From assembly GCA_004298155.1 (NCBI GenBank), contig SCRD01000017.1:1-64000 (forward strand): a stretch of 64,000 nucleotides of DNA, in the 5' to 3' direction. How positions within the stretch are numbered: the first letter of the stretch is position 1; every line of letters starts with the position of its first letter. The notes under the pieces are model-generated. The model saw only the letters and a list, made by a program, of their open reading frames with translations. It was not told where the DNA came from and ran no database searches. Source of the stretch: Acidobacteriota bacterium (GTDB lineage: Bacteria; Acidobacteriota; Terriglobia; UBA7540). This document shows, piece after piece, positions 47,075-56,731 of the stretch. The translations under genes were made by a program, and so were the position numbers.

Positions 47075-47112
47075 GCACTGTCAGAGCCTATCGAGATAGG
47101 CTCTGACAGTGC
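47075..47112 (+). terminator. 18-bp perfect inverted repeat followed by T-run
   Basis: GCACTGTCAGAGCCTATC, then GA, then its exact reverse complement, then TTTT at 47113-47116. Placed 105 bp after the M50 stop. The stem is longer than a usual rho-independent terminator and strong in both directions. Confidence 0.75.
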
Positions 47113-47148
47113 TTTTGGAATCCGTCGATAGAGGGTTCAACGGTTGAA

Positions 47149-47164
47149 TGTTTCACGTGAAACA
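47149..47164. promoter_or_regulatory. parS site 1
   Basis: TGTTTCACGTGAAACA, a perfect match to the chromosomal parS consensus bound by ParB. It lies 127 bp before rsmG. Confidence 0.95.
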
Positions 47165-47290
47165 CGAGCTTACCGCGCCCTTACCTCTCGTCATTCTTCA
47201 GTCCGATCATCGGTTGGGCCTCTGCCGAACAACGGCGCCGCTTTCTAGACAAGTTGCGAGCGTTCCTGACATATTCTAAAATGCACCTTG

Positions 47291-47929
47291 ATGCTTGAGA
47301 GAAACATTGTTAGAGGATGGCTCGCCCCCTTTGATATTTCCCTCTCAGATGAAATGATAGATAAGCTTCTTATCTATCTTGACCTTCTCCTCAAATGGAA
47401 TCAGAAAATGAATCTGACCGCGATTGAGGTTCCGGAGGTGTGTGTCACCAGGCACTTCGGCGAGAGCTTCTTCATTTTGAAGGCAACCCAACCGAGCGGT
47501 AGGCTTTTGGATATTGGGAGTGGAGCCGGATTCCCGGGTCTTGCCATCAGATTGATCGCTCCCAGCCTTGATATCGCCCTCCTCGAGCCGACAGCCAGGA
47601 AGAGAGCTTTTTTGAAAGAGGTTGCAAGGGCTTGTGGAATGGATCGAGTGGGAGTCTTCGATAGCAGACTTGAGAAGTTTATGCAAACTCCGAAGCAACA
47701 ACCATTTGACATCATAACTGTGAGGGCGGTAGGAGGAACGGCATCCCTGGTTCGGAAAGCTACGGTTCTGCTGAGAAATGGGGGCTCTTTTTGCCTCTGG
47801 GCCGGAGGGCAGCAGATTCATCAAATTAGAGATTCCAATCCGGATCTTCACTGGAGAAACCCGATACCAATTCCACTAAGCCATGATAGATTTATTTTGG
47901 CGGGAGTGAAAGTTCACGCCAAATCGTAG
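47291..47929 (+). CDS. rsmG: 16S rRNA (guanine527-N7)-methyltransferase
   Basis: Methylates G527 of 16S rRNA using SAM. 212 residues. WNQKMNLTAI near residue 38 and LLDIGSGAGFPGLAIRL near 74 (SAM-binding GxGxGxP). LLEPTARKRAFLKEVARA and ITVRAVGG complete the GidB profile. A TTG at 47288 is followed directly by the ATG at 47291. Codons are visibly A/T-richer than in neighbouring genes. rsmG next to parA-parB is the classical origin-proximal arrangement; gidA is not here. Confidence 0.96.
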   Translation: MLERNIVRGWLAPFDISLSDEMIDKLLIYLDLLLKWNQKMNLTAIEVPEVCVTRHFGESFFILKATQPSGRLLDIGSGAGFPGLAIRLIAPSLDIALLEPTARKRAFLKEVARACGMDRVGVFDSRLEKFMQTPKQQPFDIITVRAVGGTASLVRKATVLLRNGGSFCLWAGGQQIHQIRDSNPDLHWRNPIPIPLSHDRFILAGVKVHAKS

Positions 47930-47982
47930 CAATCTATTTGCAATCAGATAGATACTTAACCATACCGAGAAACACTAGGCGA

Positions 47983-47998
47983 TGTTTCACGTGAAACA
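47983..47998. promoter_or_regulatory. parS site 2
   Basis: TGTTTCACGTGAAACA, perfect, within the 20-bp palindrome GATGTTTCACGTGAAACATC. Between rsmG and parA, 834 bp from site 1. Likely also near the parA promoter. Confidence 0.95.
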
Positions 47999-48069
47999 TC
48001 GGAATTTCCCTTGTTTTGGAGGTTCAGATTTGATAAGTTTTGCTCCTCCTGTTTCGACCTAAAATAGCC

Positions 48070-48876
48070 ATGGGACGTGTTATCGCAATCGCCAATCAGA
48101 AGGGTGGAGTCGGAAAGACCACGACTACCATCAATCTGGCCGCGGCACTGGCTGCGCAGGACATGTGGACACTTGTGATAGATTGTGACCCCCAAGGGAA
48201 TACAACCAGCGGCTTCGGATTTCCAAAAGACCCCTCGCGACGGTCCCTCTACCATTCGCTGATTCTAGAAGTTCCACTCACAGAGCTGATTCTGCCGGGA
48301 CCCGCTGAGGGTATTCAATTAGTCCCCTCTGATAAAAACCTTGTTGGTGCCAATGTCGAGCTCGTTTCGAGGGCAGGCAGAGAACATATTCTCCGCGAGA
48401 GGCTGGCTCCTATTCGGGATCGCTATAACTACACTCTGCTTGATTGTCCGCCCGCTCTTGATTTGCTTACGCTCAATGCCCTTGTGGCGGCAGATTCGGT
48501 TCTTGTTCCTATTCAATGTGAGTATTTCGCTCTCGAAGGTGTCTCGGAATTGCTTGACACGTTGATACGTATTCGGCGGACTCATAACCCAAAGTTGGCA
48601 GTCGAGGGGATTCTGCTGACCATGTTTGATGAAAGAACGAATTTGTCGCATCAGGTTCGAGACGATCTCAAGGATTTTTTTGGGGACCAAGTCTTTGATA
48701 CCCTGATTCCCAGGAATATCCGCTTGGCGGAGGCCCCTAGCCACGGAAAACCCGTGCTTTTGTATGACCCGGAATGCCGTGGCTCGGAAAGCTATATTAA
48801 ACTTGCAAAAGAGGTTATTAATCATGACCAGAAAGGCGCTGGGGCGAGGATTGAACGCTCTGTTGCGGGAGACTGA
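48070..48876 (+). CDS. parA: Chromosome-partitioning ATPase ParA (Soj)
   Basis: 268 residues. Deviant Walker A ANQKGGVGKTTTTINLAAAL at residues 8-27, with the signature Lys. VIDCDPQGNTTSGFG is switch I and LLDCPPALDLLTLNAL Walker B. ATP-dependent DNA binding drives ParB-parS segregation. The ATG at 48070 (MGRVIAIANQKGG) is chosen; 10 upstream codons are open. The last 53 bases overlap parB, so the two are translationally coupled. Confidence 0.97.
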   Translation: MGRVIAIANQKGGVGKTTTTINLAAALAAQDMWTLVIDCDPQGNTTSGFGFPKDPSRRSLYHSLILEVPLTELILPGPAEGIQLVPSDKNLVGANVELVSRAGREHILRERLAPIRDRYNYTLLDCPPALDLLTLNALVAADSVLVPIQCEYFALEGVSELLDTLIRIRRTHNPKLAVEGILLTMFDERTNLSHQVRDDLKDFFGDQVFDTLIPRNIRLAEAPSHGKPVLLYDPECRGSESYIKLAKEVINHDQKGAGARIERSVAGD

Positions 48877-49675
48877 AACCGTAACGATTTCTGCCGGGCT
48901 TGAGCAAATCCCTCTTAGCCTGATCGATCCCAATCCCTTTCAGCCGCGCACTGTGCTCTCGGTGGAAGGCCTGGACGAGCTTGCCAACTCTATCCGCTCC
49001 AACGGGCTCATCCAACCCATTCTTCTTCGCCAGGCTGGCGAGCGATATCAGTTGGTCGCCGGTGAGCGGCGATGGCGTGCAGCAGGCAAAGCTGGCCTTG
49101 AAAAGGTGCCAGCAATTGTTCGCGAGATTGATGATACTGAAGCACTCGAGCTGGCGCTTGCTGAAAATCTCCTGCGCGAAGCGCTCAACCCTATTGAAAT
49201 TGCGCGAGCTTACGAGCGGTTGCAGCAACAGTTTCGCCTCACTCATGAACAGATTGCCGAACGGCTGGGCGTCAATCGTTCGACGGTAACAAATACTCTC
49301 CGCCTCCTCGGACTCCCACCCATCATACAAACTCTCCTCATAGAGGATAAAATCACAGCGGGCCATGCCCGCGCCCTGTTGCCAATTACATCGCCGGGCG
49401 TTCAAGAGAAGCTGGCGGACAGAGTCATCGAAAAAGGCCTTTCGGTCCGGAACCTGGAGAACCTCGTAGCCTCGCATAAGCCGGCGCAGGAAAAACAGGA
49501 TTCAAAGCCAGCCCCCAAAATTGATCCGAACCTCCGAGCTGCCGTGGTTGAAATGGAGCGCGCTCTCGGAACGCGGGTGAAAGTTGTTGGAAGTGGGCGC
49601 CGCGGAAAAATTGAAATCAGCTATTTCTCTGCGGACGATCTGAGCCGTATTTATGATTATATAATGCGTGTTTGA
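48824..49675 (+). CDS. parB: Chromosome-partitioning protein ParB
   Basis: 283 residues. The N-terminal CTP-binding domain includes SIRSNGLIQPILLR and LVAGERRWRAAGKAG, the conserved GERRxRA box that binds CTP. The central helix-turn-helix THEQIAERLGVNRSTVTNTL near residue 145 recognises parS. The C-terminal dimerisation segment is about residues 225-283. The ATG at 48824 gives MTRKALGRGLNALL, the classical start, preceded by GAGGTTATTAATC. Two parS sites lie within 1.7 kb upstream. Confidence 0.97.
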   Translation: MTRKALGRGLNALLRETETVTISAGLEQIPLSLIDPNPFQPRTVLSVEGLDELANSIRSNGLIQPILLRQAGERYQLVAGERRWRAAGKAGLEKVPAIVREIDDTEALELALAENLLREALNPIEIARAYERLQQQFRLTHEQIAERLGVNRSTVTNTLRLLGLPPIIQTLLIEDKITAGHARALLPITSPGVQEKLADRVIEKGLSVRNLENLVASHKPAQEKQDSKPAPKIDPNLRAAVVEMERALGTRVKVVGSGRRGKIEISYFSADDLSRIYDYIMRV

Positions 49676-49751
49676 TGTCTGTTTCATCGTATGATAATAA
49701 TGTTATTTGATAATCAGATTTCGATAAATAAAAATATACATGGAGGTCCCC
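49676..49751. other. A+T-rich spacer between parB and bactofilin
   Basis: About 80% A+T by hand count over 49680-49740, very unlike the rest of the window. Contains repeated GATAAT/TGATAAT blocks. May be the bactofilin promoter. No DnaA-box consensus (TTATNCACA) found. Confidence 0.5.
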
Positions 49752-50180
49752 ATGGCTTTGAAGCTTGGCAAGCTGTTCCGAGGGCGGTCGGCAAACAAGA
49801 TGATGGATCATGAATTGGTCGGGCTGCTCGAGCCAGGGATTGAGTTCGAAGGCAAAATGACCGTTGCTACCGGGATGGTACGGATCAACACGCATGTCAA
49901 GGGCGAGGTCGATTGTGCCGGGCTCGTCGTTCTTGCAGAACAGGGCGAAGTGGAAGGACTCATTCGATCCAGGTTCGTTAGTATTGCTGGAAAAGTCAAG
50001 GGAACGATCCATGCCTCTGAAAAGGTTGAAATCAATGCAACCGGGATTGTGCTGGGAGACATCCATACGCCTTCTCTGTTTATAATGCCCGGAGGATATT
50101 TTGACGGGCAATGCAAGATGCCTGTTTCCGAGACGGCAAATATTTCCGAGGAAACAATCGAGGCGAAACACAAAGTCTAG
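49752..50180 (+). CDS. Bactofilin
   Basis: 142 residues of the DUF583/bactofilin family, nucleotide-free filament-forming cytoskeletal proteins. The core is a right-handed beta-helix with hydrophobic hexad pattern (VKGEVDCAGLVVLAEQGEVE, VSIAGKVKGTIHASEKVEIN, GIVLGDIHTPSLFIMPGGYF). Short disordered ends flank it. ATG at 49752 has GGAGG 5 bases upstream; an ATG at 49740 overlaps that site. It follows parB by 76 bp. In Myxococcus, bactofilins scaffold ParABS, so a partitioning link is plausible here too. Confidence 0.93.
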   Translation: MALKLGKLFRGRSANKMMDHELVGLLEPGIEFEGKMTVATGMVRINTHVKGEVDCAGLVVLAEQGEVEGLIRSRFVSIAGKVKGTIHASEKVEINATGIVLGDIHTPSLFIMPGGYFDGQCKMPVSETANISEETIEAKHKV

Positions 50181-55351: not shown

Positions 55352-56731
55352 TCAGAATGACGCATCGGCCTTGGCTGGCTCCCAGCGAGGCTCAATCCCG
55401 CTCTCGCTGCCGGCAAGCCAGGGCTGTAAATCCTGGAGGGCCCGCTCGCACTGCCATTCGCGGCGAGCACGGCGGTCACGCGCCACGGGCCTCGGGAGAT
55501 CTTCGATGGGCGGCAGGAGATCGAACGAAATGTTCGCGGGCTGATAATTTTGCGGGCTGGCGTGCGTGATGTAGTGGACCAGCGAGCCGAGGGCCGTCGT
55601 CCGGGGCGGCGGTGCGAAGGTTTCCTGCCGCATGCGGCGGGCCAGCGCCATGCCGGCCAGCAGGCCTGTGGCAATGCACTCGACGTAACCCTCTACGCCT
55701 GACAATTGCCCGGCGATGAAAACTTGCGGGCTCGAGCGAAAACTCAGATCGGGGCCGAGCAGCCGTGGCGCGTTGATGTAGGTGTTGCGGTGGATCTGTC
55801 CGTAGCGGAGAAATTCAGCATTCTCGAGGCCCGGAACCATGCGCAGGATCCGTTTCTGTTCCGGAAATTTCAAGTGATTTTGAAAGCCAACCAGGTTGTA
55901 GCTTGAAAAACGCAGATTTTCCGCGCGGAGCTGTACCAGAGCGTAAGGCCGTTTGCCCGTGCTAGGATCGACAAAACCCACTGGCCGCATGGGGCCGAAG
56001 CGCAATGTGTCAAAGCCGCGCCGCGCCAGCTCTTCGATGGGAAGGCAGGCCTCGAAATATTTTACGTCCTCGAATTCGTGCGCCTTCACCGTTTCCGCGC
56101 TCATCAACGCCTCGTGAAAGGCGCGGTACTCGTTATGCGTCATCGCGCAGTTCAGGTAGTCGTCGCCGCCCTTCCCGTAACGCGAGGCGCGGAAGATGCG
56201 GTCCATGTTCAGCGTGTCGGCATCAACAATGGGGCTGATGGAATCGTAAAACGCAAGGCTTTCGCTCCCGGTCAAGCGCTGGAGGCTTTCAGCGAGCGCA
56301 TCAGAAGTGAGCGGGCCAGTAGCAATAAGTGTGAGGCAGTCGCCAGGGATTTCGGTTACCTCTTCGCGGCGCAAGGCGATGAGCGGATGCGAATCAATAG
56401 CGTGAGTGACGGACGCCGCAAAGCGCTCGCGGTCAACGGCCAGCGCGGACCCGCCTGGAACGGCGCATTCATCGGCCAGACGGAGCAGCAGTGAACCCGC
56501 GCGGCGCATCTCTTCTTTGAGCAGCCAGGAAGCCGCACCAGGGGTGTTCGATTTAAGTGAGTTGCTGCAGACCAGCTCCGCCAGCTGGTCCGTTTTGTGG
56601 GCGGGAGTCGAGCGCCGCGGCCGCATTTCGCACAGCGTGACCGGCACGCCACGACTGGCAAGCTGCCAGGCCGCTTCGCTGCCCGCAAGCCCGCCTCCGG
56701 CAATGAGGACGTGTTCTTTCATCGCTGGCAT
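55352..56731 (-). CDS. trmFO: Folate-dependent tRNA U54 methyltransferase TrmFO
   Basis: Flavoprotein that methylates U54 of tRNA with methylene-THF. 459 residues. N-terminal FAD-binding HVLIAGGGLAGSEAAWQLAS, then VTLCEMRPRRSTPAHKTDQL and LVCSNSLKSN with a conserved Cys. FIAGQLSGVEGYVECIATGL near residue 335 closes the FAD site. The last residues (ADASF) and the TGA are formed by sequence of the dispersed repeat family, so the natural C-terminus may have been replaced. The ATG at 56722 is an equally good start. Followed by xerC; upstream is an SMP-30 lipoprotein. Confidence 0.95.
   Translation of the reverse strand: MPAMKEHVLIAGGGLAGSEAAWQLASRGVPVTLCEMRPRRSTPAHKTDQLAELVCSNSLKSNTPGAASWLLKEEMRRAGSLLLRLADECAVPGGSALAVDRERFAASVTHAIDSHPLIALRREEVTEIPGDCLTLIATGPLTSDALAESLQRLTGSESLAFYDSISPIVDADTLNMDRIFRASRYGKGGDDYLNCAMTHNEYRAFHEALMSAETVKAHEFEDVKYFEACLPIEELARRGFDTLRFGPMRPVGFVDPSTGKRPYALVQLRAENLRFSSYNLVGFQNHLKFPEQKRILRMVPGLENAEFLRYGQIHRNTYINAPRLLGPDLSFRSSPQVFIAGQLSGVEGYVECIATGLLAGMALARRMRQETFAPPPRTTALGSLVHYITHASPQNYQPANISFDLLPPIEDLPRPVARDRRARREWQCERALQDLQPWLAGSESGIEPRWEPAKADASF

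What the first reader, a model, noticed from the sequence alone, without database searches (positions are those of the whole stretch)
47149..47998. Two perfect parS sites flank rsmG, marking a likely origin-proximal domain
TGTTTCACGTGAAACA occurs twice without mismatch at 47149 and 47983, on either side of rsmG and just upstream of parA-parB. Perfect parS sites beside rsmG-parAB are known to lie near oriC in most bacteria. It fixes the position of this contig relative to the origin.
Basis: partly seen in the sequence, partly recalled or inferred. Interest (0 to 1): 0.6.

Follow-up and report, generated by a model that had tools for sequence, protein, structure and literature searches.

The report
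Ordinary chromosomal centromere beside rsmG-parAB
Two perfect copies of the standard bacterial centromere sequence (parS) flank the rsmG gene next to the chromosome-segregation genes parA and parB in an acidobacterium, about 55,000 bases from the likely replication origin; this is a textbook arrangement found across the phylum.

Summary
TGTTTCACGTGAAACA occurs exactly at 47149-47164 and 47983-47998, either side of rsmG and upstream of parA-parB. These are the only copies with up to 2 mismatches in the 5.21-Mb genome. The neighbours are genuine RsmG, ParA and CTP-type ParB, then a bactofilin. The genome is an acidobacterium; most relatives keep parS-like sites around rsmG-parA inside otherwise diverged spacers. 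The origin-proximal reading is supported by new evidence: dnaA-dnaN-gyrB-gyrA lies on the same contig 55 kb to the right (about 1% of the genome), and the dnaA-dnaN gap holds the densest DnaA-box cluster of the 456-kb contig. In a phylum sample, dnaA lies 1-67 kb from parS in all 24 genomes where both are on one contig. One expectation failed: GC skew does not centre on parS and is uninformative here. A fourfold-site T/A skew switch falls at about 80-106 kb, nearer dnaA. Site B sits 12 nt upstream of a conserved sigma70-type parA promoter, so ParB may regulate its own operon (inferred). Verdict: a real, ordinary ParABS centromere. The only mildly unusual point is a clade-wide change in ParB's parS-contact residues.

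The parts
47149..47164 (.). parS site A, perfect 16-bp palindrome TGTTTCACGTGAAACA, in the intergenic region upstream of rsmG
   Evidence: retained (0-1 mismatch) in the two closest relatives with this region, L065 and L066, where the flanks hardly align
47983..47998 (.). parS site B, perfect, in the rsmG-parA intergenic region
   Evidence: a parS-like site at this place in most acidobacterial relatives; main conserved block of the spacer
47291..47929 (+). rsmG (gidB), 16S rRNA m7G527 methyltransferase
   Evidence: TIGR00138, 123.3 bits over cut-off 99.5; PF02527
47254..47282 (+). putative rsmG promoter TTGCGA-17-TAAAAT, start point close to the ATG
   Evidence: sequence; same register in the L065 and L066 alignment
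48011..48039 (+). putative parAB promoter TTGTTT-17-TAAGTT with extended -10 (TG), beginning 12 nt after parS site B
   Evidence: matching TTG-N17/18-(TG)nTAnnTT in most relatives, consensus TTGCNN-17-TCTGnTAGNTT
48070..48876 (+). parA, Walker-type partition ATPase
   Evidence: PF13614, 1.6e-60; N-terminus [23 protein letters not shown]
48818..49675 (+). parB, CTP-clamp centromere-binding protein; start overlaps the 3' end of parA
   Evidence: TIGR00180 over cut-off; ParB_N, HTH_ParB and ParB_C domains; GERRWRA and ENLLR motifs; homologous over its core to solved ParB chains such as 7bnk and 6t1f
49740..50180 (+). bactofilin, downstream neighbour of parB
   Evidence: PF04519, 6.5e-25; next to parB in most relatives

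Best explanation
The two sites are the centromere (parS) of this acidobacterium's chromosomal ParABS system. ParB made by the adjacent gene loads at each parS, closes as a CTP-dependent clamp, spreads over rsmG-parAB and neighbouring DNA, and is moved by ParA so that the origin region, about 55 kb away, is segregated first. Site B also abuts the parAB promoter, so ParB loading there probably lowers parAB transcription (autoregulation). Shown here: the sites, the genes, their conservation, and dnaA, dnaN and DnaA boxes nearby. Inferred from the family: CTP-dependent loading and spreading, ParA-driven movement, autoregulation.
For: Exact sites with chance expectation near 0. No other copies in the genome at up to 2 mismatches. 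True ParA, ParB and RsmG. ParB carries GERRWRA and ENLLR and the parS-reading R173/G201 pair, and none of the other three ParB-like proteins of the genome has that pair. parS-like sites lie around rsmG-parA in most acidobacterial relatives, with the rest of the spacer largely unalignable apart from the promoter. dnaA-dnaN-gyrB-gyrA is 55 kb away, with the top DnaA-box cluster of the contig at the dnaA-dnaN gap (7 per 250 bp against at most 4 elsewhere). In the phylum sample parS is 1-67 kb from dnaA in all 24 genomes with both on one contig, median about 12 kb. The parA promoter is conserved beside parS.
Against: No binding or segregation data. GC skew does not mark this region. Three parS-contact residues conserved in ParB and Noc (Q162, K171, S172 in Caulobacter numbering) are H, V and N here (PMC7383237), so affinity cannot be assumed identical. 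In 14 of 38 genomes parS and dnaA are on different contigs and cannot be measured. Exact parS was found in only 39 of 149 phylum genomes; the others were not searched for variants.
Confidence: 0.96

Rival explanations
1. The palindromes are chance matches or sites of an unrelated regulator that recognises CACGTG.
For: CACGTG-centred palindromes serve as operators elsewhere (general knowledge); site B lies beside a promoter.
Against: Chance expectation about 0.01 in the window; only two in 5.2 Mb, both next to parAB; retained at homologous positions in relatives with diverged flanks.
Confidence: 0.01
2. Site B serves mainly as an operator for parAB autoregulation, and the segregation centromere is site A or other degenerate sites.
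For: Site B ends 12 nt upstream of the conserved parA -35 box, and the gap is 11-16 nt in several close relatives.
Against: In other relatives the parS-promoter gap varies from 28 to 145 nt while both elements persist, so parS is kept without fixed promoter spacing. Many relatives have only the site-B position within the DNA held, so it is their only candidate centromere there.
Confidence: 0.02
3. The sites target a Noc-type nucleoid occlusion factor or a plasmid or secondary-replicon system rather than chromosome segregation.
For: ParB scores on the Noc model (228.7 bits), and three other ParB-domain proteins exist in the genome.
Against: Below the Noc cut-off of 315. Specificity positions are R-T-G-G, not Q-K-K-R (PMC7383237). 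The site is parS, not NBS. Same contig as dnaA, dnaN, gyrB and gyrA. The other ParB-like proteins lack the R173/G201 pair.
Confidence: 0.01

Closest known systems
Chromosomal ParABS centromeres (Bacillus subtilis Spo0J/parS, Caulobacter ParB/parS)
   Same: Same 16-bp parS, ParA-ParB pair next to rsmG, origin-proximal, CTPase motifs in ParB
   Different: Only two sites, both within 0.85 kb; ParB contact residues 162, 171 and 172 changed; mnmG (gidA) is elsewhere (C18)
Myxococcus xanthus parAB with bactofilin bacM downstream (PMC5703909)
   Same: Bactofilin gene immediately downstream of parAB
   Different: Different phylum; Myxococcus has many more parS sites (22 near the origin, PMC3899335); role of the acidobacterial bactofilin unknown
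Other Acidobacteriota loci (e.g. L065, L066, L084)
   Same: rsmG - parS - parA - parB - bactofilin order with the same promoter layout
   Different: Sites carry 0-2 mismatches; the site upstream of rsmG is present in only some relatives

Membership tests
Chromosomal ParABS / parS | 16-bp palindrome TGTTTCACGTGAAACA or close variant | tested here: met
   Two exact copies
Chromosomal ParABS / parS | Adjacent parA (Walker ATPase) and parB (ParB_N, HTH, dimerisation domain) | tested here: met
Chromosomal ParABS / parS | ParB CTP-binding motifs GERRxR and ENxxR | tested here: met
   GERRWRA and ENLLR
Chromosomal ParABS / parS | parS-reading residues R173 and G201, said to be invariant in ParB orthologues (PMC7383237) | tested here: met
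   R and G at the aligned positions
Chromosomal ParABS / parS | Other parS-contact residues Q162, G170, K171, S172, N178, R204 | tested here: inconclusive
   G170, N178 and R204 kept; Q162 is H, K171 is V, S172 is N; H162 and non-K171 also in most acidobacterial relatives
[quoted passage not shown] PMC7022226) | tested here: met
   55 kb from dnaA-dnaN with the top DnaA-box cluster; oriC itself predicted, not mapped
   Weak, mostly positive skew along C17 with no minimum at 47 kb; skew is not informative in this genome
Chromosomal ParABS / parS | ParB binds and spreads from the sites; loss impairs segregation | not testable with these tools
   needs ChIP-seq and genetics
Noc/NBS | QKKR specificity residues and NBS-type site | tested here: not met
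   RTGG at those positions and a parS site; below the Noc model cut-off

The most novel reading that the evidence does not exclude
In this acidobacterial clade ParB reads an unchanged parS with altered contact residues (Q162H, K171V/L and S172N/D in Caulobacter numbering, seen across most relatives), so parS recognition may have been rewired on the protein side while the DNA site stayed constant.
Probability: 0.25. Interest if true: 0.35.

Novelty: new member of a known kind. Interest (0 to 1): 0.13.

Why it matters
It places this window in the origin domain of an acidobacterial chromosome and shows that ParABS with parS sites beside rsmG-parA, close to the parA promoter, is the normal layout in this group. 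It is useful for annotation but not surprising. It also warns that GC skew cannot be used to place the origin in this genome.

Tried and rejected
GC skew as origin marker: uninformative, both raw and at fourfold-degenerate sites. Exact DnaA box TTATCCACA: a single copy at 412 kb, far from dnaA, so only relaxed matches were informative. Cumulative gene-strand bias: minimum at 179 kb, not useful for pinpointing the origin. Other parS variants in the genome: none convincing. Literature on parS in Acidobacteria: nothing directly relevant found.

Full report
Observation. TGTTTCACGTGAAACA is present without mismatch at 47149-47164 and 47983-47998. Shuffled sequence gives 0.01 matches at up to 2 mismatches, against 2 found. 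In the whole genome (5,213,467 bases, 29 contigs, 97.6% complete) these are the only copies with up to 2 mismatches. A relaxed core search added only broken palindromes at the frequency of the control pattern.

Genes. RsmG (TIGR00138 over cut-off), ParA (AAA_31, 1.6e-60) and ParB (parB_part over cut-off; ParB_N, HTH_ParB and ParB_C domains) are confirmed, followed by a bactofilin. ParB most likely begins at 48818 (MTRKALGRGLNALL) and overlaps the end of parA. It is homologous over its core to solved ParB chains. It carries the CTP motifs GERRWRA and ENLLR, and has R and G at the positions aligned to Caulobacter R173 and G201, which PMC7383237 reports as absolutely conserved in ParB orthologues. 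The other three ParB-like proteins of the genome lack that pair. Hence this ParB is the likely partner of these sites (inference).

Who it is. The nearest ParB relatives with names (the best 20 or so, 78-54% identity) are all Acidobacteriota, several labelled Terriglobia or subdivision 13 / gp13. In them the order rsmG - parA - parB - bactofilin is kept in most, and parS-like sites (0-2 mismatches) lie in the rsmG-parA gap in most, and upstream of rsmG in some (L065, L066, L078, L082). In spacer alignments the parS block is the main conserved stretch; the flanks do not align apart from promoter elements.

Phylum-wide sample. Exact parS occurs in 39 of 149 genomes, the window's own included. 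Of 29 loci inspected, most lie next to rsmG, parA or parB; one (L042) has both flanks of rsmG occupied as here, and four (L038, L039, L047, L048) showed no hit to the window's proteins in the 3 kb held. dnaA was located in 38 of the 39 genomes. It is on the same contig as parS in 24, at 1-67 kb (median about 12 kb; the G109 value assumes its contig is circular), and on another contig in 14.

Origin. On this contig dnaA (C17:102866-104188), dnaN (104394), gyrB (105735) and gyrA (108194-110707) form the classical cluster, about 55 kb right of the parS sites and outside the window. The dnaA-dnaN gap holds the densest cluster of DnaA-box-like sequences on the 456-kb contig: 7 per 250 bp including the end of dnaA, and the next best place has 4. 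This makes it the probable oriC, about 1% of the genome length from parS, well inside the 20% origin domain described in PMC7022226.

Skew. Fourfold-site T/A skew does switch (permutation P 0.0006), with a flat minimum between about 80 and 106 kb, compatible with an origin at dnaA rather than at parS. This was one of several skew measures tried, and ORFs were called by a simple longest-ORF rule, so I treat it as supporting evidence only.

Regulation. A TTG-N17/18-TAnnTT promoter with an extended -10 lies before parA in most relatives (consensus TTGCNN-17-TCTGnTAGNTT). In the window it is TTGTTT (48011) and TAAGTT (48034), starting 12 nt after site B; in close relatives the gap is 11-16 nt, in others up to 145 nt. 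Autoregulation by ParB is therefore plausible but not shown, and the variable gap argues that parS is kept for its own sake. A similar promoter, TTGCGA-17-TAAAAT, lies directly before rsmG.

Unusual detail. Contact residues Q162, K171 and S172, conserved between ParB and Noc according to PMC7383237, are H, V and N in this ParB. H162 and a non-K residue at 171 are shared by most of the acidobacterial relatives, although their sites remain parS. This was noticed on alignment and not tested further.

Verdict. It is an ordinary member of a well-known system.

Noticed in passing
window 49740-50180; L065-L086: A bactofilin gene follows parB here and in most acidobacterial relatives, as bacM does in Myxococcus xanthus (PMC5703909); a possible link between bactofilin and segregation or cell shape in this phylum.
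   Followed up: partly
window 48818-49675 (ParB HTH, from residue 141): Clade-wide changes at parS-contact positions (Q162H, K171V/L, S172N/D) while the DNA site stays canonical.
   Followed up: partly
G000 C17:104394-105503, C24:213035-214141, C8:185069-186172: Three full-length dnaN (beta clamp) genes in one genome, each over the family cut-off.
   Followed up: no
window 47075-47116: Perfect 18-bp inverted repeat with a 2-base centre followed by TTTT, between the M50 peptidase gene and parS site A; looks like an intrinsic terminator (sequence).
   Followed up: no
L074 1241-9250: In this relative about 7 kb of extra DNA separates rsmG from parA, and a parS-like site is found near both ends of it.
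   Followed up: no
G000 C18:38069-40018: mnmG (gidA), often beside rsmG in other bacteria, lies on another contig; the window has the related trmFO at 55352-56731.
   Followed up: no
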